Of a DNA stretch of 64,000 bases, positions 1 through 22,801 are shown one piece after another. A program made the translations under genes and the position numbers. Position 1 is the stretch's first letter, and every line of letters begins with the position of its first letter. This stretch comes from Theodoxus fluviatilis. Taxonomy: Eukaryota > Mollusca > Gastropoda > Cycloneritida > Neritidae. The notes below the pieces were generated by a model that was given only the letters and a program-made list of their open reading frames with translations, did not search any database and had not been told where the DNA came from. The DNA lies in the NCBI GenBank assembly GCA_034096865.1, contig JAWQFJ010000507.1, positions 1 through 64,000 on the forward strand, read 5' to 3'.

Positions 1-477
1 AAATTGATAATTTGGGTTTACTTTGTCGATTTTGAAAACTTGCCGATTTTGCACTCTGTGACCTCTCTAGATATGGACCCGATGTTGCTTTAGTGTGAAA
101 ACGAACTCTTTATGGGCTAAATTCAGCAATAAAACATACCACCCACCTATCAAACGAGTCTCCTTGTGCAATATTTCGTCAAAATTTGCAATGTTTGGGT
201 CTTGGCAACGGGCCTAAATTTTGAATGAACCCCTGCAAGTTAGGTATCACTGGAAAGCGGCACATGTCGTCTACAAATTGCAAGGGACGTAACTCTTCTA
301 GACTTCTTCTCCATAGAGCTACATGGCAGCAACGAAGAGTTAGATTGTATGAGATCTGGTCAGCTGACGCGAATGGACCAATCGGAGAGCTGGAATCGCT
401 ACCACAATGCAATGCGGCTTAGAGACAAAATGGCTTCCACATGAGCTGTTGGATTGTCAGTTTAAATACATTTTGCC

Positions 478-1727
478 ATGCCTGGACGAAAATCGCACAC
501 TGTAGGTGCTTTTAAACTCACGAAAAGCAAGAAAAGAAAGGAACAACTGTCAGCTGTACGAGCTGTGAAGGGAAGAAAGCCTTGTGATGTGGAATCGACG
601 TCAGCCACGTGTGCGAGCGCACTATCAGCGACTGCTACATCGTCATCGTCGGAACCAGTCCCATCTACATCGGCTGCTGAACCACTGGCGTCAAGTTCCA
701 GCTACAGCACACCAGCCCCCTCTACATCTGCTGATGATCCGGCACCATCCTCATCGCGATTGAAATTGGAGAGATTTCGAGAGGAGTATGACATGCCCAG
801 TGCAGCCGACCGAGTGTGGATTCTGACAGAGATCGGTCAGCTCAATGAACTCATTTCGGATGCAGTGTGTCCAAAGTGCTTCGAGAATCGTCTTTTAGTA
901 CGAGCTGGCACCCCTCTTGGATTTTCTCGGGAGATGACTATGATTTGTGGACGATGTAGAGAGGTAAGAAAATGCGTTTCTTCACCTCGCATTGAAAAGA
1001 GGCAAGAGAAGAAAGTGGGGTTTGAGGTGAACAGGCGTGCTGTGCTGTATTCCCATGAAATTGGTGGTGGATATGCTGTCTTGCGAAAGTTTTGCAGTTT
1101 TCGGCATGCCTCTTCTCCATGGCAATACTTTTTCCAGCATTGACAGGAGAGTCTGTGATGCTCTTGCTGCATCAAGGGAAGCCACACTGGACATGACTGG
1201 ACTTTGTGAAAAGGCAATACAGAGAGACCCATCATTGTGGCCAACACTCAGCAGAGGAGTTCAGTGAGGAAGACAGTGAGGATGACACAGCATGGGATGA
1301 AGATGATGGGATACCATGAATGATGGATCTATAGATGTGTTGTTCGATGGTACATGGCAGAAACAAGGATTCACACCTCACAATGGTGTGGGCGTTGTGA
1401 TTGATGTCCTCACAGGGTATGCTGTAGACTTCGAGGTGCTGTCAACATACTGCCACGTGTGCACCATGAACAAAGAAAAACTGAGGAAGATGACTGCAGC
1501 TGAGAGATGCAGGGGTGATGCAGAGTTTGAACATTGCTGCAAATGAGGTGACCCTGCTTCTGCTGCAGAAAGAAGATGCCAAGAGGAAGAGGAAGGCAGA
1601 TAAAGCTGCAACTCTAGCTTTCCTAAACAAAAGACGTTCACACCGTGTTGAGCATCTGCATGACATTGCTGCTCAGGAGGATGAAGAGGGACCAATCTAT
1701 GGCCCAGGCATGCTGGAAGACTCATAG
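478..1727 (+). pseudogene. Decayed Mutator-like (MULE) transposase, internally deleted
   Basis: Three reading frames carry successive pieces of one invertebrate Mutator-like transposase. The first (478-1143) is a Lys-rich, Ser/Thr-rich start followed by CPKCFENRLL and a CGRC motif, then FEVNRRAVLYSHEIGGGYAV. A frameshift near 1095 moves the reading to the +1037 frame (FGMPLLHGNTFSSI). A second break precedes 1316-1546, which reads LFDGTWQKQGFTPHNGVGVV and VLSTYCHVC, the first part of the DDE core as I know the family. The last piece (1515-1727) carries the Lys/Arg-rich tail ending GPIYGPGM. Most of the catalytic core between about 1500 and 1530 is missing. I found no terminal inverted repeats. 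The copy cannot encode an active enzyme; the family assignment rests on remembered motifs. Confidence 0.7.
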
Positions 1728-2710
1728 AATGTGACTGGGAAGCAGAAATTGGCTGTAAATTTGACTGAAAGTCCTTTTTCTGTGACATGGAACATTCCAA
1801 AAACTTTGTCGGCTGATTTCTCGGATTGTTGATTTTTCACGATGGTAGCTTCATGTAGAAATCGATAGAAAATTGTGTGTTTGTGCTAGTCACTTTCTGT
1901 TTTTTTCATTTTGTAGACAGATGAGTAGCCTGTGATATTACAATGAGAATTTAATAGAAAAACATTTGGTAAATTTTGCATTTGCTGAAGATTAAAAATA
2001 TTTCAAGCCTTACACAAACAGAAAACATATAGTTAAAATTCTAGGTTGTAGTTTTTTAAAATAAACAAGATAGACAAAATGTCTTCATGTAATCTCATGA
2101 GCAACATTATTATATGCAAATTAACATTGGTTTGAAGTTGATATGTAGTCTCTTGATTTTTTTACTGATTTCTTGAAAAATACATATTTTCCCCCATTTC
2201 CGTCATAAAACTATCATTATTTTCATAAGTACACCAGATACAGCCTTTATTTGATTTTTTTTTGTTTATTCCAAATGAACTAAATAAAAAATCAGCATCA
2301 AAATTGGAGAAATAAAAATTGGTAAAAAATGTGTACTGTAGCTGCCGTAAGCAAGAATATGTTGATGCTCACTTCAAGGGAGGTTACACAACAAACTAAG
2401 GGCTAATGTAAGATATAAGAGTTGCTTCCCTTGAAATTGTTTCGCCATCTGTCGTGGACATGTTTGCTCACATCTTGCCCGGTAATTATTTCAGAGCAGT
2501 TATTCTTTTATAAAAAGAAAAGTACAATATCAGCCTAACTTCTTGTAACGTCTCGCATAGGCTGGGTAATAATCACAGGTCGAAATGCGTGCCACAGATC
2601 ATATTTGTGATGGCGACTTTCTTCCTTTCCCCGAAGGCAGCCATTTTGTTATACAGGCGCGACAGCATTCCAGTGCTATCTACTAGTCGATACCGGTAGC
2701 CGTACCAAGT

Positions 2711-2763
2711 CGTTCAAGAGTCGAACGGTATCAACCGGTCGATACCGGCAGGCCTCTTGAACG
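2711..2763. repeat. Inverted repeat, 10-bp perfect arms
   Basis: CGTTCAAGAG at 2711-2720 pairs perfectly with CTCTTGAACG at 2754-2763 across a 33-nt loop. The loop and flanks repeat the motif CGATACCGG in degenerate form. It may be a fragment of a transposon end; no target duplication was found. Confidence 0.5.
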
Positions 2764-2870
2764 CACGGCAGGTTGAAGACTAGGTACCTCTGCAAGTTAT
2801 TATCAAAGAAGACTCCATGCACCCACCTGCCAAGGTGGATGTCATTATAGTGACACAGTCCGTGGTTGAT

Positions 2871-2945
2871 GTAGGCACCCACAGTGCAGGCACCCACAGT
2901 GCAGGCATCCAGGGTGCAGGCACCCACAGTGCAGGCATCCAGAAG
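2871..2945. repeat. Short tandem repeat, 15-bp unit, 5 copies
   Basis: The unit GCAGGCACCCACAGT occurs five times in tandem with one to four substitutions per copy. It lies inside an intron and has no coding role that I can see. Confidence 0.75.
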
Positions 2946-3366
2946 CTAATGCAGTTTCAATTATCCTGCTCTTGTGCCCACAGAGGTGAAAATGTCATAC
3001 ATTTTCAATGTCCCATGAAACATTTGACTGTTAAATGTTTATGGGGATGTAAGCATGCTATATCTAGACTTTCAACACCAGCATCTCACTTAAGTGATCT
3101 CAATGACTGCAAAAAATTGATCATGTTTGTACTAACACAGAAAGTCATCTTGTTTTTTGTTTTCTTTCTCTTTTTTGGACATGTTTGTAATGCTGTTGGA
3201 ATGTGAAAATAAAGAACTGAAATTCTAGTTTTGGAGATTTAATTATATAAACAGTTTGGTACAGATAACAATAGTGGAATTGCAAACTTCCTTCAAGAAA
3301 CAGTAAAAAAAAAAATGTTGGTTTTGTTCTTCATGTCATATATATTTTTAATCATTACTGTTGCAG

Positions 3367-3584
3367 CATGAAGTGGAGATGGATCTCATCTACAAGTACT
3401 CTCCATTCCGGTCAGAGGAGGAATTCTTTGCACAGTTTGACAAGATCGAAGGCAACTCAGGAACTCTTGTGATTGTGTTCAATATGAAACTTCTGGACTC
3501 TGGAGAGACAGAGCTTGACGTCCACTCAGACCCAAATGACATCCTGCTGACAAACCCCGAGTCTGACTTTGACTCGGATGAAGG
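3367..3584 (+). CDS. MORC2: MORC2 exon 1 of window: end of GHKL ATPase domain
   Basis: 218 nt, entered in phase 0 after acceptor TTGCAG and left through donor GTAAGT with two bases of a split Gly codon. It encodes [18 protein letters not shown], then [19 protein letters not shown] and a DVHSDPNDI stretch, matching the part of MORC2 that closes the ATPase domain. The acidic end (DFDSDEG) differs from vertebrates. Confidence 0.92.
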
Positions 3585-4792
3585 GTAAGTGGCCAGTGTG
3601 ACGTGATGATTGTTGGGCCGGAACTGGCAGTCTCTGAGAGAGTGTCGCTGCTTGGAGTTGTGGAGGAAGCCTTGCAAGATGAGGAGCGTTTCCTTCACCT
3701 TAGGTGATGGGAGAGAGGGTGTCAGTGCTGGCTGTTCCACTGCAAGGTGCTTTTGTACCCAGCTCTGTTGTTTTCAGTCCTCTCAGCCTCGCAGCTTTTG
3801 CAGCCTGGATGGCTAAAGTGATGAGTCGCTGTGGGATGCATGGAGGCTGCTGGGATGGATTTGTGGTTCTGGGCTTGTGTGTTGAAGAGTGAGTAGCCAG
3901 CCACCAAGTGCAGGCAGTGTTAAACTGCTTGTAGCGGAGGAGAGCGTGGTCATTACTCTGTTCTCCTCTCCTTCACTCTTGCGTTTATTGCACTGTGTGG
4001 AAATGCAATGGCATGAAACCGGCTTTGTGATATTCTTAAATGTAGCTTATTCTAGAGGAGGAGATGATTAGAAAGGAAACGTCCTAATTTGATTCCTTTT
4101 TATAGCTTTGCTGTAGCACTGCAAGTGCCAAAATGAATAATAAATAGCTTGTTTAAAGCAGGATCTCAAACTTGCAAGCTGTAGCCTGCACAGAGGCGTT
4201 CTCCCTGAAACATCAGTGGAGTGGACTTGGTGTGTGGCCATGCATGCAACCCTGGCTCTAGACCTCAGAACTACTTTCAGGCAAACACCCAGCAATGTTG
4301 TCAGTGCTCTAAGAAATGTATTGTTTTATGTAGATCTTCACAAAAGTAAAAATTGATCATTGGTCTGGTAAACATGCTGTTTTCCCAAGTTTTACACTTA
4401 GTAAGCAGAAAGCCTGCAAGAACAAGAGCTTTGCTGGTTCATTTGGTATTGACAGGTCTTCGTGCTTGGTTTTGTTGCCAAAGAGTTTGCCTTATTGTCT
4501 AGTTGTTGAATGTTTTTCACAACTGTAATGTCTGTCTTGGGATCCAGATGATAAAGATTCCTGTCTGCACCGTTCTAGATGATTTGTAATCCATGCACAG
4601 TAAATGCCAGATGGCTATTACATGGGAAGGTTGCATGCAAGGAATTTTTTACTCTGCATGCCTCTAAATTCTTTGCATGATGGCTGTTTGTGATGTAATC
4701 TATGGAATGGTGGTAACACCACTGGTTGGCCGGTAGGAAGATGATAAGCACTGGAAGGAGAAATGTACTCATTGCTTGTTGCTTTTATCCAG
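3585..4792. other. Intron with no recognised element
   Basis: 1.2 kb between donor GTAAGT and acceptor TTTATCCAG. I see no transposon end, tandem repeat or alternative exon in it. Confidence 0.6.
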
Positions 4793-5038
4793 GCTTGTAC
4801 CAGAGAAGAGATCCTTCCGAGCCTACACAGCCATTTTGTACATGGACCCCAGGATGAGGATATACATTCAGAACAGGAAGGTGCGCACGAAAAGGCTATC
4901 TTGCTGTCTGTACAAACCCAAGATGTACCGCTATTCCTCCAACCGTTTCAAGGGACGCTCTGAGAGCGAAGCCAAGAAGTCCCAGGAGGAAGCTGTTGCT
5001 GCTGAGAACAAAGCCAGGGAGTCCGAGAGCAAAGCAAA
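4793..5038 (+). CDS. MORC2: MORC2 exon 2 of window: transducer-like strand and coiled-coil start
   Basis: 246 nt. The first base completes a Gly codon; the reading is [20 protein letters not shown], then [17 protein letters not shown], and then an Ala/Glu/Lys-rich helix that starts the antiparallel coiled-coil arm characteristic of MORC2. It ends with two bases of a Lys codon before donor GTGAGT. Confidence 0.94.
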
Positions 5039-5439
5039 GTGAGTTTTCTCTTTCCTGGACCCCCCACCTCTGTCTTGCTGTCTCCTCTCCTCTCATCTTG
5101 CTTTGGCCTGTCTTGGATCCGTGGCTCCTCGTTTTCTTGTCTTCATGTTTCTGCTTGGAACTGTATCTGGATGGATGGATGGTTGGATATACTTTATTGT
5201 TCTTCAATAGAGGACATTCTTTGCATGCTGTCAGGAAAATGAATATGCACAGAGCAGTGAAGTCATGCAGTGGAGATGGTCACAACAAACAGTTGATAAT
5301 TTTAATATGGATCTAGGTTAGATAATTAGTCAACATATGAGTAGCATCCTAAATGGCTTTCCCTCCCCAGAACTATTACTTCATGTGAAAAACAAATTGA
5401 CTTCATTATATCGTCTAGTCCAGCCATTTTTCATCCCTG

Positions 5440-5735
5440 TTTGATTATCTGCAAGCAGATTCTTGTTTTTCAATAATGGTTGTCTCCACCAGAAAGTCCA
5501 GCAGTCTGTCACTGTACTTTATACAAGTGTGTTGTAGAATATAGCCAGGAATCCGCTGTTTGCATGCCATGCTCTCAAGAGTTTGAGACTGCACAATCAT
5601 GGCAGTCCTTTCCTGCAGAGCCTCCGTGTTCTGATTCCAAGTGAGCTTCTTATCAGTTGTTGTGCCTGAGTACTTTTGTTGGGTTGTCAATGTCTGAGCT
5701 TCACATCTGTACAGTGTCACACAGAATTCCATTAG
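5440..5735 (-). mobile_element. Non-LTR retrotransposon reverse transcriptase fragment
   Basis: On the minus strand the frame reads LTTQQKYSGTTTDKKLTWNQ then NTEAL, matching the thumb-region motif (YLGTxxDxKLxW...NTE) found at the end of many LINE reverse transcriptases. After this the sequence is frameshifted and only loosely recognisable. No endonuclease, UTR or target duplication is visible. It is a dead 5'- and 3'-truncated scrap inside a MORC2 intron, inserted against the host gene's direction. Confidence 0.65.
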
Positions 5736-5934
5736 GCTTCTTCAGAAAATCACATGTAATCTCTGCTTGTTGCAAACAGATATCTTCACCGCCAATCACA
5801 AGCTCTTTGGTTTTCATTACATTGAAGTAAAGGGAATGATTATCACACAATGCACTTATCCTCACCTTTGGGATATAATGATTAACATGAGACCCAAAAT
5901 AGCATTATCATTAGCGGATAGAACAATTGTCTGT

Positions 5935-6050
5935 GTGCGTGCATGTATATGTGTGTGTGTGTCTGTGTGTGTGTGTCTGTCTGTATGTATGTATGTATGA
6001 ATGTATGTGTGTATGTATGTATGTATATATGTATGAATGTATGTATGTCC
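5935..6050. repeat. TG then TATG microsatellite
   Basis: A TGTG/TCTG-rich stretch passes into imperfect TATG repeats ending near 6050. Confidence 0.85.
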
Positions 6051-6360
6051 TTGGCATTGTGGCTGCCTCTCTCCCTATTTATGACATCTTTTGAATGATT
6101 TAACCTTTGCTTGCAATGGGCTGGAGGCCTTAATAGTACGTTAGCTCATGAATGTGATCATTCCTTGTCTTTTGCCGTCTCCTGTGTCAAGCTATTTCTG
6201 GGTCACTTGGTCTCCCACTACGTATGTTTCTGTGCTTCCTTTTCATTCTGTTGCCCTCCGTTGACTTACAGCATCTTGATTCAGTCAAAAGCAGTAGATT
6301 TGTAGAGCAACTTGCATCCTTTTCTGTGTTCAGGCTTGTTGTCATTTGGCTGCAGATTAA

Positions 6361-6870
6361 TTTCCTGTGTGTGGTGTCAGTCATTCCTGTGTGTGATGTC
6401 AGTCATTCCATTGTGTGATGTCAGTCATTCCTGTGTGTGGTGTCAGTCATTCCTGCGTGTGATGTCAGTCATTCCTGTGTGTGATGTCAGTCATTCCTGT
6501 GTGTGATGTCAGTCATTCCTGTGTGTGATGTCAGTCATTCCTGTGTGTGATGTCAGTCATTCCTGTGTGTGGTGTCGTCATTCCTGTGTGTGGTGTCAGT
6601 CATTCCTGTGTGTGATGTCAGTCATTCCTGTGTGTGGTGTCAGTCATTCCTGTGTGTGGTGTCAGTCATTCCTGTGTGTGATGTCAGTCATTCCTGTGTG
6701 TGATGTCAGTCATTCCTGTGTGTGGTGTCAGTCATTCCTGTGTGTGGTGTCAGTCATACCTGTGTGAAGTGTCAGTCATTCCTGTGTGTGGTGTCAGTCA
6801 TTCCTGTGTGTGGTGTCAGTCATTCCTGTGTGAAGTGTCAGTCATTCCTGCGTGTGATGTCGATCATTAC
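6361..6870. repeat. 22-bp minisatellite, about 23 copies
   Basis: The unit ATTCCTGTGTGTGATGTCAG plus TC repeats head to tail with one or two substitutions per copy. All three plus-strand frames stay open through it, which explains the Val/Cys/Ser-rich translations. Many copies hold TGATGTCA, one base from the palindromic CRE site. Confidence 0.95.
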
Positions 6871-6901
6871 TGTACAAGTGCCTTGTCACATTGTGCACAA
6901 G

Positions 6902-6902
6902 C

Positions 6903-6978
<76 letters not shown>
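6902..6978. repeat. GT microsatellite joined to GA microsatellite
   Basis: About 18 GT units run directly into about 20 GA units, immediately downstream of the 22-bp minisatellite. Confidence 0.95.
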
Positions 6979-6981
<3 letters not shown>

Positions 6982-7268
6982 CTAATCAGATGGAAAGTTC
7001 AGATCAGTTTAACGTACACGATGAATGGAATGACTTGCTCCTCTTGCTGATGTCTGGTACACTGTAAACACTGGCATGGTTTTGCTGTAAAAGTTACTAG
7101 TAAACAACTGCTAGAGACAGGGTTTCCACCTTTCTCCGGGCAGGGTGTCATTGTGTCATGGGGGTCAGAGGGGTCATGGTTTGGGGAGTGTGTGTGAGGT
7201 TGGTAAGGTTTGTTCTGGAATTCCAGATGATGTCTATGGAATGACATGTCCATGAATATCTGTTTCAG

Positions 7269-7314
7269 GAACTATGAAGTAAAGATAGGAAATTCTGTGA
7301 ATCGAGATCAGCGG
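7269..7314 (+). CDS. MORC2: MORC2 exon 3 of window: coiled-coil microexon
   Basis: 46 nt, after acceptor GTTTCAG and before donor GTGAGA. It reads NYEVKIGNSVNRDQR and aligns with the coiled-coil tip of MORC2, where vertebrates have a related but longer stretch. Phases match both neighbours. Confidence 0.8.
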
Positions 7315-7834
7315 GTGAGATAATTGTTATGATTTTTTAAAACCTTTTTTTCACTGATTTCTATTGCATGTACTGTGCAAAGAGAGAAGCACCTCTACCT
7401 TGACCTGGGTACTGTCCTTTCTGAAGCATCGTCACATGCTGTTTTTATGTTAGCTAAGCTACTCAAGGTCTGCATGAAATAATTTATTTTTTTTGCAAAG
7501 TAAGACGCATATTTGTGAACCACCCTAATTTTTCTTTATAATTGAAGAGTGTGGTGTGTATGTACTTTAACATCTTTATAGCAGACATCAGTGGCAGGTA
7601 CACAAGAAAGTGAAACCTTGGTGTTTATAAAAATTTTGATTAAGATTCTTTATTTTGGTGAAGTCTGTTGTTCTCATGTTATGGAAAATAAAGCAAATTT
7701 TGATGAGAGCAAAACTATTCTGGAGATGAAATTTTATTTTAGAATTGCATATGCGTCTTTATGTGGGGAAACTTTTCTTACTTTATTTTTCATGTGGGAA
7801 TGGTAATTCTATCTTGAAACTGTTGCACACTCAG

Positions 7835-7920
7835 GCGGAACTGCGGAAACTCCAAACCTTGGCTGCTGAGGCAAGGCGAGATGCCCAGATCAAGAAACAA
7901 ATATCTGAGAGGAAAAACAG
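7835..7920 (+). CDS. MORC2: MORC2 exon 4 of window: returning coiled-coil helix
   Basis: 86 nt entered in phase 0. It reads AELRKLQTLAAEARRDAQIK and KKQISERKN, the second helix of the arm. It ends with two bases of an Arg codon completed by exon 5, giving KNRALKDPK as in other MORC2 proteins. Donor is GTGGGT. Confidence 0.88.
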
Positions 7921-8325
7921 GTGGGTGCATCATAATGAATAGAGGCTGCAAGGCCTGGGCACAAACTGATGGTCCTAGTGCTGGCATATCTGGAGGTCAG
8001 GGTGAAGAAGAGGGCACCATTAGTCACATCCCACCATGGGTCCTGGCCCTGGAGTTGTCGCCTGGTTGCAGACATGCAGTGACTGGGCTAGTGTAAAAAA
8101 TACACAGAATAAATCACTTTGATGCCATTTCCAACTGTCATACTTATTTTCCCCAGCTCCATGACTTGATTATAACGGTCATGTCATCTGCTGCAAAGTC
8201 TGCCATTTTTTTGTTGTTATTGTTACCTGAGAACACTTCACAAAACTTCCTGTCGTGTTGAAGCGTGGTTCGCAATGTGAACCAATTTGATCTTTGATGG
8301 ATGAGTTTGTTGATAAATAATGCTA

Positions 8326-9684
8326 CAGTAAAACCTCTATATTATGACCCTCTCTTAAACGACTTCCTCTCAATTGCGACTTGAAAAATTTTAACGGATG
8401 TATTTTCCTATCAAAGTGACCTCTCTTAAACGACTTCCTCCAAAACGCGACTTGCGACCGTCTATCCACGGCATTTTAATAACTTTTTTACCCAGATTTC
8501 CCAAAACTGCTGTCCCTTTAGCAGCACATGCAACTGCAGTTCCTGTCCATTCCAAAACGACAGCTTTTGCATGTGGTGTTATGCACACTTAGGAGGAGTT
8601 ACTTCACGTTCTGTGAGGATTGTCTGCCATCCTGTGACGTCTCCTGAGACCAGACAGACTTGTGGTCAAGGGGCAGACAACTTTCGTGCATTACGAAATA
8701 ACGTTTTCGTCCAGACTCGCTTGAAAGATGTTAAACTTTGTAATAAACTTGTCACACAAGTTTTCCTCTGCATAAGACAACTGTCTGAAATTTCCAGCCA
8801 TTGCGGGTTCAACAGTTTGAGTCTCATACCCATAGGTAAAAATAGTATCAACTCGTAGCGAGCTGCTGCTCCAGTGACTGAAGAGGCGGAGGCTGCTACT
8901 GGCGGCCTGGTTTTCAATTTTGCTGCGAACGTGTCTGTATTGGTTTACAGGTGGCCAGTAGGTGAGGCAGAGGCTACTCCAATGGCAGCACTGACAGTGA
9001 CCGAAGTGGTCTGGCATTTGTCAGGTTAAAGTTTAAATTAGGTTGAAGTTAGGTCAGTTTTCCTCCGTTGGCCATTCAATTAGTATGGAGTTAGGGTTAA
9101 AAAAGAACGAAACAATGAAGTAAACAGTTCAGCGATCGTTACAGCGGTACCATTTATTAGTATATTTTTCAACCAAAAATCCCTGAATGACACTCATCAA
9201 GTAATTGGTCCTTGAAACAGCCAGAAACTTTGCAGCCTAAATTGAACCTATTTACGTTACCTAATCAGTAATGTCTTTTGCAAGTAGCAGTTGTATACAT
9301 GTACATTATACAGTATCAAGCATGGATAAAAGACAGTTAATCCAAGTTTTTAAAAACATGTATCTATCCTTTCATATACAGACTAGCTCCATTGTTTTGT
9401 GTATGTCGGTAGATATCAACCTCTTCAAAGTTCCTTTATCTCCTGTATTCTGCTCATACATGTATGGTTGTTATAAGAAGAAAGGGAGGTCTAGCACACT
9501 CCAAGTTAACAGTAATAAAGATGTATTGTGCATGTATTGCATTGTGTTTTATGTTGGCATTATTCCTATGTATAATACATTATGTTCATTTTATTCAAAT
9601 CTCCTTACCTCCATTTTAAGACTCCCTCCAAATTAAGACTTGATTCAGTAGGTTTTTCAAAGGTCGCAAAATAGAGGTTTCACT
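8326..9684. mobile_element. pogo/Tigger-like DNA transposon, non-coding remnant
   Basis: The left end CAGTAAAACCTCTATATTAT (after TA at 8324-8325) and the reverse complement of the right end, AGTGAAACCTCTATTTTGCG (before TA at 9685-9686), form imperfect inverted repeats of about 22 bp. This terminus and the TA duplication are typical of pogo/Tigger elements. The subterminal motif CTCTTAAACGACTTCCTC is repeated inside the left end (about 8350 and 8420), and a diverged form lies near the right end. No transposase frame remains, so this is a 1.36-kb non-autonomous or fully decayed copy. Confidence 0.8.
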
Positions 9685-10636
9685 TATCTTTTTCTTGGGC
9701 TCTCATCTTTTCTGTCTTGTGCACTCTCTCACTGCCCTGCTAATATGTGTTTTACAGGCTTTCTAGAAACATCCTGAACTAATGATAACAGACCAGACTG
9801 CCTCCAAGCTAAGTGAATGAAGTCACATGACGCATTAAAGGTCTGGCACGCGCTGGCTACATCACATAACTAGGCAACAACCTTTGAAGAAGTCTGGCAT
9901 ATTATCTAGAATTCACTATGATGATCTAGTATATTCCAGCACCTTCACACACTATTACCATTTTGAGTACAGGCAGGTTTTTCTTTGTGTGTGTGTGTGA
10001 AAATATTTTCAATGTATGTCATGCATTATCAATGTTTGCAAGAATCTCCAGTGGCTGATCTTTATACGATGGTCGTAAACAGATGCATAGTTGTTGGTTT
10101 TTTTTGGAGGTGTGTCTGATGCTGCACTTCCATAACTCTTGCTACAAAGTTTATCATCCCAACAAGGTCAAAACCAATGTATTCTCTTTTTTTCTAGCTG
10201 GTAAGTGCATTCACAAAAAGATAAAAGAAAGACTGCTTCTGTTTAGTTCCCACCTCTCCCCCAGTGCACAGCTCACTCAAACTACCAACAATCATGCTAA
10301 GGCTCTATCTTTCACTCCATCTTTTGCTCTATCTTTACAGCCATTACAAGGACTGAGTAAGAACTCCAAAAATGATTGCCTTGCCAAATACGGGAGTCTT
10401 GGATGCAGGAAGATCTGTTGAGTGATTTGAGTGAGTGAAAAAATAAATGAATGAATGGATGAGTGAATGGATGGAGTGTTACAACATATCAGCTGCTGTC
10501 ACTTATCTAAAGCAATGATGTTATAATCACAAGAGCTGGTTAAAGTAAGAGCCAGCCAAGTGTTGACTTCCCTAGGTATGCACCTTCTACAAATCTCATA
10601 GGGAGACAAGGTGGGTGTATTCTTACCCCTAACCCA

Positions 10637-10770
10637 TGGGCGTGTGTTTGTGTGTGTAACTTTGTGTGTGTATGTGTTTGTGTGAAATTGTGTGTGTGCA
10701 GGCATGTGTGTGTGTGTGCTTGTGTGTGTAACTGTATGTGTTTGTGTGTGTGTTTGTGTGTGTTAATGAT
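10637..10770. repeat. Imperfect GT-rich microsatellite
   Basis: TGTGTG tracts broken by AACT, GCAGGCA and similar interruptions. It lies 50 nt downstream of SELENOU exon 2 on that gene's strand. Confidence 0.85.
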
Positions 10771-10820
10771 TAGGAAGCATCAAAGACCCTCAGATAAGAC
10801 AGAAACTGGTGGTTACATAC

Positions 10821-10895
10821 CTCCCTGCACAAAAATCATCCAGGTCGGCGGACAGCCATGATGACGACGCCATCTTTCTTCCACAGGTCTTCTGC
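10821..10895 (-). CDS. SELENOU: Selenoprotein U (PRXL2A family) exon with in-frame TGA as selenocysteine
   Basis: 75 nt, 25 codons, minus strand, with acceptor CTTGCAG and donor GTATGT. It reads AEDLWKKDGVVIMAVRRPG, then TGA at 10838-10836, then FLCRE. The family is a thioredoxin-fold, peroxiredoxin-like redox protein. Mammalian PRXL2A has Cys at this position, and fish and other animals have Sec, giving the redox motif U-x-x-C. The stop falls exactly at that residue and the frame continues to a good donor, so I read it as Sec. The SECIS element that would prove this should be in the 3' UTR, which I could not find. The following exons, about two thirds of the protein, were also not recognised between 7921 and 10820. 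Confidence 0.85.
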
Positions 10896-11219
10896 CTGCA
10901 AGCACAGTTTCTGAGTTATTTATTTCCCTCCTCACTTCCATTTACTTACCGCACTGTCTGTGTCTGTAACTCTCAGTTGTGCAACAAGTGTGTTTCTGTG
11001 TGCTAACACGAACATGCTCATTTGTATGCCCGTCTCAATATCTCTCTTCATGCATGTGTCTGTGTGTGTGAATTTCCATCCATGCACCTGTCTGTATGTC
11101 TATCTGTGTTCTCAAACAACTCTCTCAACATCCCTATCTCTGTACCACTCAGACCACCCTTACAAGTTCATCCCTGCCCTCATCCTACCAAGCCCTCTTG
11201 CTCCTGCTTGCCCTCTCAC

Positions 11220-11396
11220 CAAGAACTCTTGGCGTAGGCTAGGGTCTTTGTTGATGGTGGACAGCTTGCTGGAGGCCAGGTACTGGAGCGTGGCCCGTTC
11301 TGCTGAGGGAATAAAGGGGTTGCTGGGGAGGTTGCACAAGATGGCTGCTCCAGCTGCCAGCCCAGCAATGCCTAGCAACACGTTGGAGATACCCAT
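11220..11396 (-). CDS. SELENOU: Selenoprotein U (PRXL2A family) first coding exon
   Basis: 177 nt, 59 codons, from ATG at 11396 to donor GTGAGA after 11220. An acceptor AG at 11411-11410 precedes a 13-nt untranslated piece, so a separate 5' UTR exon is expected further right. The product starts with a hydrophobic segment (VLLGIAGLAAGAAILCNL, residues 6-23), a signal anchor like that of PRXL2A. It continues ERATLQYLASSKLSTINKDP, which aligns with the KAALEYL region of the family, and joins exon 2 in phase 0. Outer-membrane or secretory targeting is possible. The gene is nested in, and antiparallel to, a MORC2 intron. Confidence 0.82.
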
Positions 11397-11939
11397 GGCT
11401 GGCACCACACTGAAATTTCATAATGCAGAGTTTTCAGAACGGGTTTCAACTGATGAAAATGGCATAAAGAAGCAGTTTTCGAATTGTGTATATATGGAAA
11501 TAATAAGGGCATAAATATCTCAGTGTACGTTTTAATGTCATCTAATGAACAAAATCATCACTGAACAAATTTTATCAGAATCCGTTTTGAACTTGTTGAG
11601 TTATTTTGCCCAATAACTAATGAACCATCAAATAAACTGAGGGGAAAACACAACCTTGGTGGAGGTAATCAGCATTGATGCAGGAGGGTGATATATGTAC
11701 AAATTAAGAGAAAATTTATTCTGTGCACAGCATTGAGCTGGTACTGGGATGGAATGATCCTTGAGACACAGGGATGGTTCTACTAATTTATTGCCAGCAT
11801 TGCACTGCCTGCAACTGCAGAGGAACAGTCAGCTGCCCAAGGATCAAGGGGAAATGGAGCACGTAGTTCAAGTGCCTAGAGATGGTAACACTTACAATGC
11901 ATGTAAACATACTAGCCTGCATTCAACATTCTCTTTAAA

Positions 11940-12032
11940 AACACACCACACACACACACACACACATGCATGCATGCACTCACACACACACACACACACG
12001 CACACACACGCACACACACGCACACACACACA
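11940..12032. repeat. CA microsatellite
   Basis: CACACA tracts interrupted by ATGCATGCATGC and CG steps. Confidence 0.9.
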
Positions 12033-14609
12033 CTGATATCCAATGATGAACAGCATCTGGAGAACAAAATCAATCAGACTAGTTTTTTTATATTGTTAAA
12101 CTTGATGCTGCCTAATTCATCCTGGCAAAGTTTGCATCAACAATCCAAAACTTGCATTTTTCTAATTTTCTTAACTGTGTCAAATGATCAAACTGTAGAA
12201 ATTCACATGATTATAATTCCTATTAGCTTTCACAGGACTTAGGAGATGAAACTGACCTAGCCATTAAACTCTATGATTAACTGTACCTGTTGGGCATAAT
12301 GTCAAGTCTAATAAACAGACAGTGGATGAAAATCTGCTGATAATTATTTCTTGCACTCAGGCATCTCTACTTGAAGAATGGCTATGGGTGAGATTGGATG
12401 TAGGTGGTAAACAGCATGTCCAAAACTCAACACAAGTTAGGACAAGATCCGACACAAAATCTGGACAAACCAATGACCTTAATCACTTGTTATCAACAAA
12501 CTCAGTTATGATAATGTTAATGCCCAAAGGTGAAATGGGAGTAGTCCAATAATCCAGAAATTTTGTTGAATAAGACATGACCTTGACACTGTGCATCAAG
12601 CATGTCACTGGAGATAAACCTGAAACATTTAACTTTGCAAAGTACTCAGCATATTAAAAAAACAACCCTGCTAAGTCATTTTTTAAAAAGGGGGTGGGGG
12701 AGTGGGTGGGGATTCACCAACTAGAAGCTATGCAGGTACAATCTTTTTTGTTGCTGTAATTTACTAGCCTAAGGCTTACATGATACATCATACATCAGAT
12801 GAGCACATGCCATCAAGTTTGTTGTGTGCGCAATTAATGTGGCGTAGATCATGGCACAACTCGCGCTTGACGCAATGATGACGCAAGTATCGGGGCATTT
12901 CTGCCCGGGAGCCGGGAAAGCAAGAGTGTGTGGTCAGGCTCGATAAGCTATGTCCTGCATAAGAGTTTACTGTTTCTAATCATCACATATAATAGCGCTT
13001 GGGATCGGGTACACCTCGGCAAATCTATATCCTTCGCAATTGCGCCAACTCACTTTCCCAAGCTTAGCAACATTGACAAGTGTTCGTCACAATGCACTCT
13101 GAACTCTGCATAAGAGCAACAGAACAACAAAAAACGCGTATCCAACAAATATTGGTTCATATTTACTTTACATTGTCCGCAGCAGACAACGCTGCTCCAT
13201 TCAACTACTGCGGTGAAAGCACGCCACAGCTGTCCAAAAATTATTTCGACCTTGTGACTGTGAGTCACAGAGTGACAGAAAACATTCTACTCACAAACTT
13301 TTGGAGCACTGGAGGGGCCGAAGTATCTTGGATAGAATCATCAGTGATTAAGTGTCATATGATCACAGCAGAACTAATATTCTACTGCCCAACACGACTT
13401 CATTCATAAAAGCATCGGTGAACCAGCGATCAAAGACCATGGTCTTTGCAGCGATGTACAGTACTTGTTTTACAGGGGGAGGCTAGTTAATTTGAGTTAC
13501 TTCCCTTAGGCAGGTACTCGATTTGGAGAGCTCAAAGCTGCGTTTCGGAAAGTCACAAAGTGCCCCCGAGTATTGAAAGACAGTGCTCACAAACGGGGAT
13601 ATAACAATTAAACCAAGTGTGTTTGTTCAACAAACATACGACATACACCATCCTGTGATCAGAAATGTTCAATGTTGCTGGATGACCGAGAAGATCGACG
13701 CTCAGAGATCTGCAAGTTGTTGGCACGGCAAGTTGAAGTGGCCAAGTCTAGCCGAAGACTTATTCCTAGAGCTATGGTCTAGCAAGTGTTGTTTCTTTTA
13801 CGTATCGAACGAAGGGCACAAACCTTCATTACTGCCGAGGTGAACAACGAGGAAAGTAAAAATGCAGACATGTTCGTCTTAACTTACGGATGATATTACG
13901 TGCATATGTGCAAAGCGGTCGATCGAATATTATATTTGGTTGCAGCAAACCTTTCCGAGCCTGTGCAAACTTGCAAGTAGCCGAACGTGCAAATTATATT
14001 CACTTTCGCACAAACTGTCAGCTTTATTTTGGCTATAAGTAGTGACTGATATACGACACAGTGTAACATGCAGTATCAAAAAGTCGTTCGGAAAGACCAG
14101 CCATATAACTAAAGAACGCTCGTGATTATCGGAGTTAAAATACTCACCCATCCACGGTATCAGTGAGCCAGTCAATCCAGGACATTTGCTTGCTATTGGT
14201 GATCGAGCTAGTCCAGTGATCTTGCACCAAAGATTACACCAATGAATGAGTTCAAAGTGCAGGGGAACAATCGGCTGCTTCGAGTTCGAGACGCTCCCAA
14301 GTTCGCCTTGTGATGTGAACTTCGCGCGAATGATTGAAAGTGGCGCTGAAAGACGTAGAGCTATATTACACAGGTCAGTGTAGGAGCTTTGAAGGAACGC
14401 TCGGCTTTGCAACAGACCAACCCCCACTGAAATGTCGTTTATACCACAGTTTGTGCAATGGGAGTGGTTCGAAGCCCAGTTTAAGTTATTTCTGTGTAGC
14501 CGCGCGCGTGCGTGGGAACACGTACTTTATAAACATCCGGAGGGGTTCGGTTTCGCTGCCATGGTGATTATGTGAGACTGAGAGCCTTGGGTAAATCGAG
14601 ATGCTTCCA
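12033..14609. other. Unassigned sequence upstream of SELENOU, partly CpG-richer
   Basis: No gene or element was recognised. The part from about 12830 to 14600 has clearly more CpG than the surrounding intron (for example GCCGCGCGCGTGCG near 14500). It lies 5' of SELENOU on the minus strand, so it is a candidate location for its promoter and non-coding first exon. A 165-codon open frame on the minus strand (13930-14427) resembles nothing I know. Confidence 0.35.
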
Positions 14610-14866
14610 CATAGGTGTCAAGTCTCACGTATTTTGCGTGAGTCTCACGCAATTTCAGTGATTTTTAAGTCTCACGGCGTGAGACGAAAACCTCACGTAA
14701 TTTTGCGTTTTTGTCGGACTGATTTTTTTAAAGGTTCGTCTGAGGACTGTGTGAAAGTGTACAAGCCTCGCGATAAGTCGCTTCTCCCGCCTGCGTAGTG
14801 TGCCACAACAAAGAGATTCAAAGCGCAATAATGGCATCTTCGAAACGCCTGTGAAAAGGGAAGCGG

Positions 14867-15168
14867 CTTAGGAGAGAAGAGCGTCAGCCGGCTGACGGCA
14901 TGCATGTACATGTACAAGTAACGCTGAATTGGAAATCTCGGCATTTGAACGAGAACGAGACCGCATTCTCCACTCCGTCTGACTTCGCACGCCCGGGGAG
15001 TTATGCTAAGATCCGGCCGCGTTTATGAATCTGCGTTTTGTGGCAAACGTCTTGTTCGGCGGTACTGTACGCCATGCACCTTAGCGGTCCGCGTGATTCG
15101 GGTGTAATCTTAAGCTAAACGACGTTTATTGGCTGCCGTCTTAGGAGAGAAGAGCGTCAGCCGGCTGA
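14867..15168. repeat. 29-bp direct repeat flanking a 244-bp insert inside the hAT element
   Basis: CTTAGGAGAGAAGAGCGTCA and the following CGGCTGA-containing bases occur identically at 14867-14895 and 15140-15168. The insert between them (14896-15139) is related, in inverted orientation, to the MITE at 35594-35893: about 14985-15128 aligns with about 35675-35818 over some 140 bp. Either a MITE insertion or a local duplication could have produced it. Confidence 0.7.
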
Positions 15169-15202
15169 TCTCTCAAATGTAGTTGCTGTAGACTGCCACT
15201 GT

Positions 15203-15231
15203 AGAATCTGTTCTTTGTGTGTGTGTGTATG

Positions 15232-15311
<80 letters not shown>
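15203..15311. repeat. GT microsatellite abutting a splice acceptor
   Basis: About 50 GT units run straight into CAG and then into the hAT transposase coding sequence. The repeat is itself an open frame, which artificially extends the coding frame upstream. Confidence 0.95.
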
Positions 15312-15314
<3 letters not shown>

Positions 15315-16397
15315 TCCAAGCGCAGAAACTACTACAAGAAGTTTCAACTCTTCACTGAAGTCGAAGACAAGATCATCTTGAAGCACTGCCCCACTAGGTG
15401 GCTGAGTTTGGAGAGAGTGGTGACTAGGATGCTAGAACAGTATCCCGCCCTGCTGAGTTACTTCAGAAGTCACGAGGATGGAGAGAAGCCAGGCAAGGTG
15501 AAGAACATCTTGCAGCACCTAGAAGACCCTATGACAGAGCTCACCTTCCGCTTCCTCAAGTTCGTACTCCCAACTCTGAACGACTTCAACACAGTCTTCC
15601 AGGCTGATGAGTCAAAGGTTGGCATGCTGATTTCAGAGATGAGAATCCTGCTGAGAAAATTTCTTTGCAAATTTGTGAAGACGGACGTCATCAAGACCAC
15701 TGAACTGACTGAAATTGATGTCTCTAACAGAAGCTGCCAGCTGGATGATTGTATTCTTGCTGTTGGCATGCCTTGTCGTACACGCCTTGCTGATGCTGAC
15801 ATCGCACCAGCCACAGAACACAAGTTCTTGCATGATGTTCGACAGTTCTACACAGCCTGTGTCCAGAAAATGTTGAACAAGTTCCCATTTGGAGATGAGA
15901 TCCTGGAACATATTCAAGTCCTGGACCCCAGCAAGAGAGAGCAGCTGTCATACATTGACATTGTGACACTGGCAATGAAATTTGCTGATGATGTTGACCA
16001 GGAAGACCTGAAAGAGGAGTGGGAAGACTTTCAACTCCTGGGTGAGGGTGAGCTGGTACTTTTGGATCAGAATGGAAAAGCCAAAAAAATGGATGTTGTC
16101 TGGAAGGAGATCCTCACAATGAAAACACCTTTTGGAGAAGTTAGGTTCCCTCTGCTTGGCAAAGTGCTGCCTGCTCTTCTGTGTCTGCCCCACAGCAATG
16201 CTGACAGTGAGAGAGTGTTCTCAATGGTGAGAAAGATCCACACAGATGCCAGAAGCAGTCTGGCTCCTGACACCCTGGCAGCTTTCTTGCAAGTGAAGAT
16301 GAACTCTGATGAGTGTTGTCATGATTTCCAGGTGACTACCACAATGCACAAGAGAGCAAAGGCTTGTACTGATGAGTACAACAAAGAACATCTGTGA
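15312..16397 (+). CDS. hAT-family transposase, C-terminal part
   Basis: About 361 codons without interruption after a likely acceptor (GTGTGCAG) at 15311. The N-terminal part reads LKHCPTRWLSLERVV, a hAT RNase H-fold motif. The last 100 residues carry PALLCLPHSNADSERVFSMV and AAFLQVKMN, the C-terminal hAT dimerisation domain. The BED zinc finger and first catalytic Asp are absent, so it is a truncated transposase, or the last exon of one whose earlier exons were lost. A possible original start (ATG at 14832) is followed within a few codons by a stop. The frame is intact over more than 1 kb, which suggests recent insertion or retained function, but the element is not autonomous as it stands. 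Confidence 0.85.
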
Positions 16398-16402
16398 CTG
16401 TG

Positions 16403-16728
16403 AGGTACTGTAGCAGGATGTAAATAGAGAACTGAACATGTGAGTGAGGGGGAGCAGTGGATGTAAATAGAGAACTGTCAGAACTGAACATGTGAGTGAG
16501 AAGGATCAGTGGATGTAAATAGAGAACTGTCAGAACTGAACTTGTGAGTGAGGGGGAGCAGTGGATGTAAATAAAGAACTGTCAGAACTGAACTTGTGAG
16601 TGAGGGGGAGCAGTGCTGTGGATGTAAATAGAGAACTGAATATGTGAGTGAAAAGAAGCAGTGGATGTAAATATAGAACTGAACACACAACTAATGAGTA
16701 AGCCTAATGTGGAGCAGTGGATGTAAAC
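16403..16728. repeat. Minisatellite of about 50 bp, 7 copies, inside the hAT element
   Basis: Copies of GTGGATGTAAATAGAGAACT followed by GAACATGTGAGTGAG-type sequence recur with spacing of roughly 41-58 bp directly after the transposase stop codon. Confidence 0.85.
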
Positions 16729-16923
16729 CAAATGAGTGATGTACAGTACTATTTGATATTAGCAGTATACATGTGCTTGTGTAATAAAGAAAAAACAACA
16801 TATTTGCCGTTTTCACGGGTTTTGTTTCATTGCCGCGCGAATCTCATGACAAAGTGAGCAATCTCATGACAAATCATGCAAAATCTCATGACAAAACACT
16901 AAAAGTACTTGACACCTATGCGT

Positions 16924-16943
16924 NNNNNNNNNNNNNNNNNNNN
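16924..16943. other. Assembly gap (20 N)
   Basis: Twenty unresolved bases lie between the hAT right end (16920) and the polypyrimidine block. A fixed 20-N run is probably a scaffolding placeholder of unknown true size. Confidence 0.98.
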
Positions 16944-18720
16944 CCCCCCCTCCTCCCTCCTCCCCCCTCCTCCTCCTCCCCCCCCCGTTCCTCCTTCTCC
17001 CTCCTCCTCCCTCCCTCCCTCCTCCTCTCCTCCCTCTCCTCCTCCTCCTCCCTCCTCCCTCCTCCTCCTCCTCCCTCCCCCCTCCTCCCTCCCCTCCGCC
17101 CTCCCCCCTCCCTCCTCCCCTCCCCTCCCTCCCCTCTCCCTCCCCTCCTCCCTCCTCCTCCCCCCTCCTCCTCCTCCCCCCTCCCTCTACCTCCTCCTCC
17201 TTCCTCCCTCCCTCCCTCCCCTCCTTCTCCTCCTCCTCCCCTCCTCCCTCCTCCTCCCTCCTCCTCCTCCCCCCTCCTTCTCCTCCCCCCCTCCCCCCCC
17301 CCTCCTCCCTCCTCCCCTCTCCTCCCCTCCTCCTCCCTCCTCCCCCGTCCTCCCCTCCTCCTCTCCCCTCCCTCCTCCCCTCCCCCTCTCCTCCCCTCCT
17401 CCCAGGTCCCCTCCCTCCTCCTCCCCCTCCTCCTCTCCTCCCCCTCCTCTCCCTCCCCCTCCCCCTCCCCCTCCCTCCTCCCCCTCTCCCCTCCCTCCTC
17501 CCCCTCCCCCCTCCCTCCTCCCCCCCTCCCTCCCCCTCCCTCCTCCTCCCTCCCCTCCTCTCCCCCTCCCCTCCCCTCCCTCCCCTCTCCTCCCCCCTCC
17601 TCCCTCTCCCCTCCTCCTCCCTCCTCCCTCCTCCCTCCTACCTCCTCCCCTCTCCCCCCTCCCCTCTCCCCCCTCCTCCCTCCCCTCCCCCTCCTCCTCC
17701 CTCCTCCCCTCCCTCCCCCTCCCTCCCTCCCCTCCTCCCTCCTCCTCCCTCCTCCTCCCCTCCCTCCTCCCTCCTCCCCCGCCCTCCTCCCCCTCCCTCC
17801 TCCCCCTCCTCCTCCCCTCCCTCCTTCCCTCCCCCTTCCTCCCCCTCCTCCCCCTCCCTCCCCCTCCCCCTCCCCTCCCCCCTCCCCCCCCCCCTCCCCT
17901 CCCTCCCCCCTCCCCCCTCCCTCCCCCCTCCCCCCCCTCTCCCCTCCCTCCCTCCCTCCTCCCCCTCCCCCCCCCTCCCTCCCTCTCCTCCCCCCCCTCC
18001 CCCTCCCTCCCCTCCCCCTCCCCCCCCCTCCTCCCCTCCCCCCCCTCCCCCCCTCCCTCCCCCCCCCCTCCCCTCCCCCTCCCCCCCTCCCCTCCCCCCT
18101 CCCTCCCTCCCCCCCCCCTCTCCCCCTCCTCCCCCCTCCCCTCCCCTCCCCCCCCCCTCCCTCCTCCTCCCCCCCCCCCCTCCCCCCCCTCCCCCCCTCC
18201 CCTCCCCCCTCCTCCCCCCCTCCCCCTCCCATCCCTCCCCCCCTCCTCCCCCTCCTCCCTCCCCCCCCCCCTCCCCCCTCCCCTCCCCTCCCCTCCTCCA
18301 CTCCTGGCCCCCACCTCCACCTCCCCCCCCCCCCCCCCCCCTTCCTTGCACCTCCCCTTCCGATCCCCCCGCCTCCAATCCTCCACCCTCCCCCTCGCCC
18401 CCCCTCCCTCCCCTCCCCCCCCCCACCCCCCCCCCCCCCTCTCCCCCCGCCCCTCCCCCCCCCCTCCCCCCTACCCCCCCCCCCCCCCCCCCCTCCCCCC
18501 TTTCCCCCCACCCCCCCACCCCCCCCGCCCACTCGTCCGCCTCCTCACGTCCCCACTGCTCGTCCCACTCTCCTCCTACGGGCCACAGGGCCCCTCCGCT
18601 CCTCACTCAACAACCTCCATATCGTCACACCTCCGTCCTAACTACTCACTCCTCCTCCATCCTCCTCCTCCATCTCCATCCTCCTCCTCCTCCTCCCCAC
18701 TCCTCCTCCTCCTCCTCCTC
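16944..18720. repeat. Polypyrimidine block, C-rich CCT/CCCT low complexity
   Basis: About 1.8 kb of nearly pure C and T on the plus strand, dominated by CCTCC and runs of C up to 16 long, with purines appearing mainly after 18300. Frames of 300-640 codons of Pro/Ser/Leu or Gly/Arg/Glu across it are artefacts of composition. It could form triplex (H-DNA) and, on the minus strand, G-quadruplexes. It may be partly a sequencing or polishing artefact beside the gap. Confidence 0.95.
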
Positions 18721-18784: not shown

Positions 18785-19294
18785 TGTCTGTTACCTTCCC
18801 CATGTTTAATGAAAAAGTTGTATTGGAATTTGGATAAAAGTTTCTTAACTGTGCCAGGCACTGTAATTTGTTAAGAAAATGTTTTATCATACAAATGAAT
18901 GAAGTCTAAAGACATAAGATTTGTAATGCTAGACAAGATGATCAAGTTGCATTGCAATGAACGCTACCTCACAATGGATGTAGCTGTACAGTACTCTGTT
19001 TAGTAAAGTCACTGTCACTGCCATTATTCCAGGCCTCTGGAACATTCTTTTGCATGAGCCTCATTAATGGCGCCTCCAGTCCTGCTTTATTGAAAACCAC
19101 AACCTTGTATTTTGAATGAATATTCTTTTGACTCCATCCACCCATCTTTACAAGCTGAGGCAAAGATTGATTCAAACCCTGTCTGTCAAAGGCTGTGCCT
19201 TCACTTCTGCAAATGTGCAAAACCCTGTTTTAACCTTTGCCATTGATTTCCACACTTGTATCAAGCATTGAGTGAATGCATTCTGTGTTTGCAG

Positions 19295-19435
19295 GGCTTT
19301 GAAGGACCCCAAAACTTTGAATCTGATCTTTGGCATCAGCCTTGACAACAGAAGCCATGACGGCGTGTTTGTCTACAACTGCAGCCGTCTGATCAAGATG
19401 TATGAGAAAGTTGGACCACAAACTGAAGGAGGAGT
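19295..19435 (+). CDS. MORC2: MORC2 exon 5 of window: transducer region
   Basis: 141 nt after acceptor TTTGCAG. It reads [18 protein letters not shown] and [18 protein letters not shown], a highly conserved MORC2 block. Two GT donors overlap at the end (19434 and 19436). Only the second, GTACGC, keeps the frame open into exon 6, giving GGVNCSGVV. Confidence 0.95.
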
Positions 19436-20209
19436 GTACGCATCCTTTCTTATTTCTTTCCTTCCATGCCAATCCTCAGGCACACATAAACCCTTGAATG
19501 CATGCTGATGAGCTTCTTCTCCACATCCAGATGCGATTGTGTTTGATCACCGATTGGTAGTGCTTGAATTAAAGTGTGTGTGTGTTTTGCTCTGCTGATG
19601 AAGATGCATAAGGGTAAAATGTAATTTTGAAACCCCCGGATAGTAGATATTCAGCATATGAGGAGCAGTTTCTCAAGGGAAAAAGCTTGACAGACTGTGT
19701 GACAATGACGTTAGCATTGCCAGCCAGAGGCAGAACTCAGTTTCCCTACAGCTGCTGTGCGGCTTTGGCCACAGTAACCTTGCATTCCCGTACCAATGCC
19801 CAGCTCTGCCACTTGCAAGCAGTCAGGCTACAGTAACCTTGCACTCCCGTACCAATGCCCACCTCTGCCACTTGCAAGCAGTCAGGCCACAGTAACCTTG
19901 CACTCCCGTACCAATGCCCAGCTCTGCCACTTGCAAGCAGTCAGGCTCCAGTAACCTTGCACTCCCGTACCAATGCCCAGCTCTGCCACTTGCAAGCAGT
20001 CAGGCTACAGTAACCTTGCACTCCCGTACCAATGCCCAGCTCTGCCACTTGCAAGCAGTCAGGCTCCAGTAACCTTGCACTCCCGTACCAATGCCCAGCT
20101 CTGCCACTTGCAAGCAGTCAGGCTCCAGTTTGACCTTCATTGCACACTCTTTGCTTCTGTGCCTTTCCTTATTGCAAACTGATGTCACCCCCTGTGTTGT
20201 TTCTTGCAG
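19436..20209. other. Intron with 59-bp minisatellite
   Basis: 774 nt. Apart from the array at 19771-20128 nothing was recognised. Confidence 0.7.
19771..20128. repeat. 59-bp minisatellite, 6 copies
   Basis: Copies begin at 19771, 19830, 19889, 19948, 20007 and 20066, with the motif CAGTAACCTTGCACTCCCGT. Divergence is one to three bases per copy. Because 59 is not a multiple of three, any translation rotates frame. Confidence 0.95.
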
Positions 20210-22159: not shown

Positions 22160-22670
22160 GTCAGTGTCTCTGTCAGGACAAGATTTCTTTGAACTGAACA
22201 CACCCTTAGCTGTCTTGACTCCTACTCTTCCACCACCTCTGTCTTGAACTTTTCCCTCTCTCACAGTCTTCTCCTCTGACTCCTTCTTCTCTCCTTTTTT
22301 CTTCTCTCTTCTTTCTCTCCTCTTCCTTCTCCTCCTTCTGCTACTTCTCAGTTTCTTGTGAGGTGATAAATGTATGGAACTGGTCAGTCAAGTCTCTCTC
22401 TTTTTAATTAATTCACTTGTGATCTTTAAAGAAAATATATAAACTGTTCACTCAGTATATATAAAAAGTGCTGCAGTGGAGCCTTTGACAGTTTCCATTG
22501 CATCTTCTTCACAGCTGTCTGTGCCAAATGTATGTCCACAGTGCCACTCTTTCATAGAGTAGAACCTGTGCAAACTGAGGAAGTCTTCCTGTGTGCTAAA
22601 CAGCTGTTCAAACATCAACTCAGGTACTGCACCCTGGGGACTGACTAACGTTTTGCCTTTGTGTTCACAG

Positions 22671-22695
22671 TGCAGCAGGGGGTGACCAAATTCTG
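22671..22695 (+). CDS. MORC2: MORC2 exon 8 of window: 25-nt microexon
   Basis: It follows acceptor TTCACAG and precedes donor GTGAGC. It encodes QQGVTKF between split codons, matching the Gln-Arg-Gly-x-x-Lys-Phe-Trp segment of MORC2. The Trp codon is split across this and the next exon. Confidence 0.88.
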
Positions 22696-22801
22696 GTGAG
22701 CATTTAAGCCTTTACATTCTTTGTGTGGTGATACCTTATTGTTGTACTTTAAATGGAAACTTTCTTGTCAAGTTTTGAGGGGAATTTTTTTCCTTTCTTA
22801 A

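What the first reader, a model, noticed from the sequence alone, without database searches (positions are those of the whole stretch)
10821..11396. Selenoprotein U with a TGA selenocysteine codon, nested antisense in a MORC2 intron
Two minus-strand exons with correct splice sites and matching phase encode the start of a PRXL2A/SELENOU protein. The TGA at 10838-10836 falls at the exact redox residue (VRRPG-TGA-FLCRE). A gene predictor would end the protein here or skip the exon. It suggests that this lineage keeps the Sec form and places a Sec gene inside a chromatin-silencer gene.
Basis: partly seen in the sequence, partly recalled or inferred. Interest (0 to 1): 0.82.

Follow-up and report, generated by a model that had tools for sequence, protein, structure and literature searches.

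The report
Snail selenoprotein U, misjoined into MORC2
The two exons are the genuine start of an ordinary snail selenoprotein U gene whose UGA codon very probably encodes selenocysteine, but the complete gene lies on another contig and its place inside a MORC2 intron looks like an assembly error.

Summary
Two minus-strand exons (11396-11220, 10895-10821) with canonical splice sites encode the first 84 codons of a SelU1/PRXL2A protein, with TGA at the redox position (VRRPG-TGA-FLCRE). No downstream exon or SECIS was found in the window. The window is bases 1-64000 of contig C506 in a 965-Mb mollusc (probably gastropod) assembly. The complete gene is on another contig, C4165: five coding exons, 218 residues, one in-frame TGA (codon 79), a TAA stop, 50-54% identity to vertebrate PRXL2A, and a weak SECIS match 829 nt past the stop on the right strand. 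So it is very probably a working Sec-form SelU1. That is ordinary: the Sec form of invertebrate SelU1 was published in 2012. The striking part, nesting in MORC2, very probably is not real. Window 9165-15232 is 100% identical to C4165; the identity starts inside a dispersed repeat and, at about 99.9%, stops 2 bases before a 20-N scaffold gap. That is the signature of a chimeric contig end. A recent real segmental duplication into MORC2 is the main rival and is not excluded.

The parts
11220..11396 (-). SelU1/PRXL2A first coding exon, 59 codons, ATG at 11396
   Evidence: identical to C4165:141845-142021
10896..11219 (-). intron 1, 324 nt, GTGAGA...TTGCAG
10821..10895 (-). SelU1/PRXL2A second coding exon, 25 codons, donor GTATGT
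   Evidence: identical to C4165:141446-141520
10836..10838 (-). in-frame TGA, codon 79, inferred selenocysteine
9165..16921 (.). stretch shared with contig C4165:139790-147545 (100% over 9165-15232; 6 mismatches and 1 gap in 15000-16921); ends 2 bases before the N gap
8323..9495 (.). dispersed repeat (long matches to other contigs at 82-89% identity; it may extend further right); the switch to C4165 identity at 9165 is inside it
16924..16943 (.). 20-N scaffold gap in the host MORC2 intron
7835..7921 (+). MORC2 exon left of the block (Gigantopelta MORC2 residues 335-363)
19293..19463 (+). MORC2 exon right of the block, beyond the gap (extent of the alignment, residues 363-419)

Best explanation
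The window holds the first two coding exons of an ordinary Sec-form selenoprotein U1 (PRXL2A, thioredoxin-fold peroxiredoxin-like) gene of a mollusc, probably a gastropod. The intact gene is on contig C4165. By analogy with known selenoproteins (inferred, not shown), the UGA at codon 79 is decoded as selenocysteine through a 3'-UTR SECIS and forms a U-x-x-C redox motif. The copy in the window is most likely a chimeric contig end: the assembler crossed from the MORC2 locus to the SelU locus inside a dispersed repeat, the SelU-locus tail runs to a scaffold gap, and MORC2 resumes beyond it. SelU is therefore probably not nested in MORC2. Shown: exon anatomy, full coding sequence, conserved TGA context, sequence identity, break in a repeat, end at the gap. 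Inferred: Sec insertion, and misjoin rather than real duplication.
For: An own-genome search with a carp PRXL2A (P0105) gave 7 matches: exons 3, 4 and 5 once each, on C4165, exon 2 twice (C506, C4165), and two on C18102. The C4165 exons join into 657 nt with one internal stop (TGA, codon 79) and a TAA end; the four introns have GT-AG ends as I placed them; identity to the four vertebrate proteins compared is 49.8-53.9%. Pfam AhpC-TSA_2 matches at 4.5e-18. SECIS_1 matches C4165:135797-135738, minus strand, 829 nt past the stop, with AUGA, apical AAA and GA aligned to the model (21.9 bits); there was no other SECIS_1 match at E<=10 in the 64-kb window, 30 kb more of C4165, the 4 kb just downstream at the same search size, the rest of L011 or 10 kb of C18102. 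Exons 1 and 2 in the window are letter-identical to C4165. Identity is 100% over 6,068 bases, begins at 9165 inside a repeat with many copies, and stops 2 bases before the 20-N gap. C4165:105001-155000 has no N and no significant MORC2 match (one row at E<=1, E 0.55). The same assembly holds another perfect duplication: two 3,168-base stretches of C18102 are exact reverse complements.
Against: No reads, Hi-C or transcripts could be examined, so the misjoin is inferred. A very young real duplication would also be nearly identical, and recombination between repeat copies could also break inside a repeat. The block is not wholly identical: 6 mismatches and 1 gap lie in 15000-16921. The SECIS match is below Rfam's gathering score (21.9 against 35; E 0.77 in 4 kb, 1.9 in 10 kb, over all families) and has non-standard pairs marked in its alignment. 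The family search with PF13911 found nothing at E<=0.001 in the whole genome, which I put down to the domain being split over exons. No second contig with the neighbouring MORC2 sequence was found (window 7000-8079 matched only itself among 40 scored of 156 candidates), so the true MORC2 intron could not be shown. The searches for further copies of 10780-13900 and of 19200-19500/19700 did not complete.
Confidence: 0.83

Rival explanations
1. A real, very recent segmental duplication of at least 7.7 kb carried the 5' end of SelU (upstream sequence and exons 1-2) and a hAT remnant into the MORC2 intron, by recombination between repeat copies or by transposition.
For: The two copies are collinear over the block; the left break lies in a shared repeat family; MORC2 exons flank the block in the right order; a few differences exist near the right end.
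Against: 100% identity over 6,068 bases; the right end coincides with a scaffold gap; another perfect, false-looking duplication occurs in the assembly.
Confidence: 0.12
2. A true nested SelU gene whose later exons continue beyond the left end of the contig, antisense through MORC2.
For: Exons 1-2 are intact and the window starts at base 1 of C506, so sequence further left is unseen.
Against: Exons 3-5 were found once each in the genome search, on C4165, starting 2.9 kb downstream of an identical exon 2; no exon 3 was detected in the 10.8 kb of window left of exon 2.
Confidence: 0.03
3. The TGA is a real stop or a decay mutation (pseudogene or truncated protein).
For: No transcript evidence; the SECIS match is sub-threshold.
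Against: 139 further codons stay open and conserved to a TAA stop, splice sites are intact, TGA falls exactly at the Cys/Sec column, and a SECIS-like match is in place. The intron right after FLCRE is at the position inferred for vertebrates.
Confidence: 0.02

Closest known systems
Selenoprotein U1 / PRXL2A (FAM213A, C10orf58), Sec form of fish, birds and invertebrates
   Same: Sequence, AhpC-TSA_2 domain, position of the TGA at VRRPG-U-FLCRE, intron immediately after FLCRE, SECIS-like element in the 3' region
   Different: Species; the exon 1/2 junction appears several codons downstream of the vertebrate one (inferred from exon-skipped models P0037, P0041, P0046); no other difference found
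Mammalian PRXL2A (Cys form)
   Same: Same family and domain order
   Different: Cys instead of Sec at the redox position
False duplications and chimeric contig ends in repeat-rich assemblies (general knowledge, no call)
   Same: Perfect identity, break in a dispersed repeat, end at a scaffold gap
   Different: Not confirmed with reads here

Membership tests
SelU1/PRXL2A family | Sequence similarity to PRXL2A over the full length | tested here: met
   49.8-53.9% identity to 4 of 4 vertebrate proteins compared, 213-219 aligned columns
SelU1/PRXL2A family | AhpC-TSA_2 (Prx-like2) domain | tested here: met
   PF13911 E 4.5e-18, 66.1 bits against cut-off 27, on the joined exons; the unspliced genome search with PF13911 found nothing at E<=0.001
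Eukaryotic selenoproteins | In-frame TGA at a position occupied by Cys or Sec in homologues | tested here: met
   codon 79 of 218. The protein library may write U as C, so fetched rows do not tell Sec from Cys
Eukaryotic selenoproteins | SECIS element in the 3' UTR | tested here: inconclusive
   SECIS_1, 21.9 bits, below gathering 35, but the only match in the stretches searched, on the right strand and 829 nt past the stop
Eukaryotic selenoproteins | Selenocysteine incorporated in the protein | not testable with these tools
   needs protein chemistry
Nested gene in a MORC2 intron | Physical location inside the MORC2 intron in the genome | tested here: inconclusive
   true of the assembly but identity, repeat break and gap point to a misjoin

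The most novel reading that the evidence does not exclude
The second copy is real: a recent repeat-mediated duplication put the upstream sequence and exons 1-2 of a selenoprotein gene, UGA included, antisense into an intron of the chromatin silencer MORC2, where it could make an antisense transcript or a truncated product lacking its SECIS.
Probability: 0.12. Interest if true: 0.3.

Novelty: new member of a known kind. Interest (0 to 1): 0.12.

Why it matters
The gene adds one mollusc to the known Sec-form SelU1 genes and shows how selenoproteins escape annotation. The more useful lesson is a warning: an apparent nested gene in a draft assembly lost its support once the rest of the assembly was searched, so nested or antisense gene claims from single windows need a test for redundant contigs, repeat-bounded breaks and nearby gaps.

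Tried and rejected
Downstream exons inside the window: none by tblastn or profile. SECIS in the window: none by Rfam at E<=10 (for the whole window, for 1-11400); a home-made pattern scan also found none but was strict and had no positive control, so it carries no weight. Pfam on the two-exon piece alone found nothing; the domain match starts at residue 88. A protein-database search restricted to the 84 N-terminal residues scored nothing at E<=0.01 among 197 candidates. Transposon capture of the exons: the 25 longest of 186 inverted-repeat pairs around them are CA/GT microsatellites, and the exons have no second copy inside the window. Literature: six searches; the most relevant paper is PMC3473315 (passages, section 7, section 8; figures not seen). 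Of PMC12822975 and PMC3828610 only passages were seen. Baclaocos et al. 2019 (PMC6885538) is not held. One search produced no result because of a scripting error and was redone; one of the two blastn comparisons printed nothing and was redone.

Full report
What is there. On the minus strand, exon 1 (11396-11220) and exon 2 (10895-10821) read MGISNVLL...RQEFL | AEDLWKKDGVVIMAVRRPG-TGA-FLCRE, with GT-AG ends and phase-0 junctions. The match to PRXL2A is far above chance: 28.5 and 21.6 bits against a best of 9.0 in 50 shuffled windows. Nothing that looks like exon 3 or later was found in the window on either strand, and no SECIS at E<=10.

Organism. The MORC2 exons are closest to Gigantopelta aegis (77%), then Haliotis (74%), Littorina (73%) and Babylonia (72%), with oysters at 71-72%, among the best 120 listed of 1086 proteins; the part scored was the window's own exons, one short exon guessed. 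The source is therefore a mollusc, most likely a gastropod. MORC2 runs on the plus strand from 3364 to at least 53191.

The whole gene. The window is bases 1-64000 of contig C506 (170,651 bases) in an assembly of 965,456,814 bases and 19,668 contigs. A search with carp PRXL2A (P0105) gave 7 matches: three later exons and one copy of exon 2 on contig C4165, the window's exon 2 on C506, and two on C18102. The five coding exons on C4165 (minus strand: 142021-141845, 141520-141446, 138539-138405, 137753-137618, 136759-136626) join to 657 nt with one internal TGA at codon 79 and a TAA stop, giving 218 residues. Identity to the four vertebrate proteins compared is 49.8-53.9% and Pfam AhpC-TSA_2 scores 4.5e-18. 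A SECIS_1 match lies at C4165:135797-135738 on the same strand, 829 nt beyond the stop. It is weak: 21.9 bits against a gathering score of 35, E 0.77 in 4 kb and 1.9 in 10 kb over all 4227 families, with non-standard pairs marked in the alignment. But it was the only SECIS_1 match at E<=10 in the stretches searched (the larger searches use stricter filters), and asked of that one family alone the E-value would be about four thousand times lower (my arithmetic).

Support from vertebrate models. Among the best 120 listed of 555 PRXL2A-like proteins, 99 have C and 1 has W at the position, and 20 lack the motif as I wrote it. In 13 of those 20 (counted by eye) the model resumes exactly at EA[AS] after losing at least FLCRE, as expected if predictors dodge a TGA and if an intron follows FLCRE in vertebrates too. 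The window's donor after FLCRE is at that same place. The library may print U as C, so the 99 do not show how many are Cys forms.

Why the nesting is doubtful. Window 9165-15232 is letter-identical to C4165:139790-145857, and the match continues to window 16921 with 6 mismatches and 1 gap. It stops 2 bases before a 20-N gap at 16924-16943, while C4165 runs on with other sequence. On the left, 8323-9164 resembles C4165 only at about 78-89% (gaps counted, my arithmetic), because this is a dispersed repeat: a search with 8323-9500 returned 78 matches (357 candidates, 40 scored), the long ones to other places at 82-89%, many of them covering both sides of 9165. The switch to perfect identity is thus inside a repeat copy. 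MORC2-side sequence at 7000-8079 matched only itself among 40 scored of 156 candidates, and C4165:105001-155000 shows no significant MORC2 match. A contig that crosses from one locus to another inside a repeat and then ends at a scaffold gap is what a misjoin looks like. The assembly also carries two exactly reverse-complementary 3,168-base stretches on C18102. A young true duplication would look similar, and only reads can settle it; I give it 0.12.

Against what is known. Jiang et al. 2012 (PMC3473315; passages and sections 7-8 seen) list at least one SelU in each of six invertebrates, including one in the limpet Lottia gigantea (its subfamily is not stated in the text I saw), say that three of the more than ten are SelU1, and state that all invertebrate members of the SelU1 family contain Sec. 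They also note incomplete selenoprotein copies without SECIS. [quoted passage not shown] The gene is therefore a new member of a known kind, and its expected mechanism (UGA recoding through SECIS, SBP2 and eEFSec) is established knowledge, not tested here.

Noticed in passing
C18102:12860-13027 (L006/L013) and 27179-27346 (L007/L014): A PRXL2-like stretch with an in-frame TGA (AIVVFLRRFG-TGA-HLCR), which by recalled resemblance is SelU3/PRXL2B; the two places lie in exact inverted copies over 3,168 bases. No SECIS match at E<=10 in 10 kb around one copy.
   Followed up: partly
window 15219-16397, +: hAT transposase remnant (PF05699, E 2e-8), part of the block shared with C4165.
   Followed up: partly
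window 40785-42405, -: Transposase with DDE_Tnp_1_7 (PF13843; piggyBac type by recall) split over two overlapping frames.
   Followed up: no
window 478-1143, +: Open frame weakly like a Mutator transposase (PF20700, 19.8 bits, below cut-off 26.5).
   Followed up: no
window 55543-63999: About 8.5 kb of 23-base minisatellite (about 364 copies) reaching the window end.
   Followed up: no
window 16944-18546: About 1.6 kb of CCT-rich low-complexity sequence directly after the N gap, a possible cause of the assembly break.
   Followed up: no
window 11397-11420, -: TTTCAG ending 13 bases before the ATG and an in-frame TGA just upstream suggest a separate 5'-UTR exon (read).
   Followed up: no
window about 22670-22700, +: Short MORC2 exon-like stretch (QQGVTKFW) seen when a 400-base piece was searched alone.
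   Followed up: no
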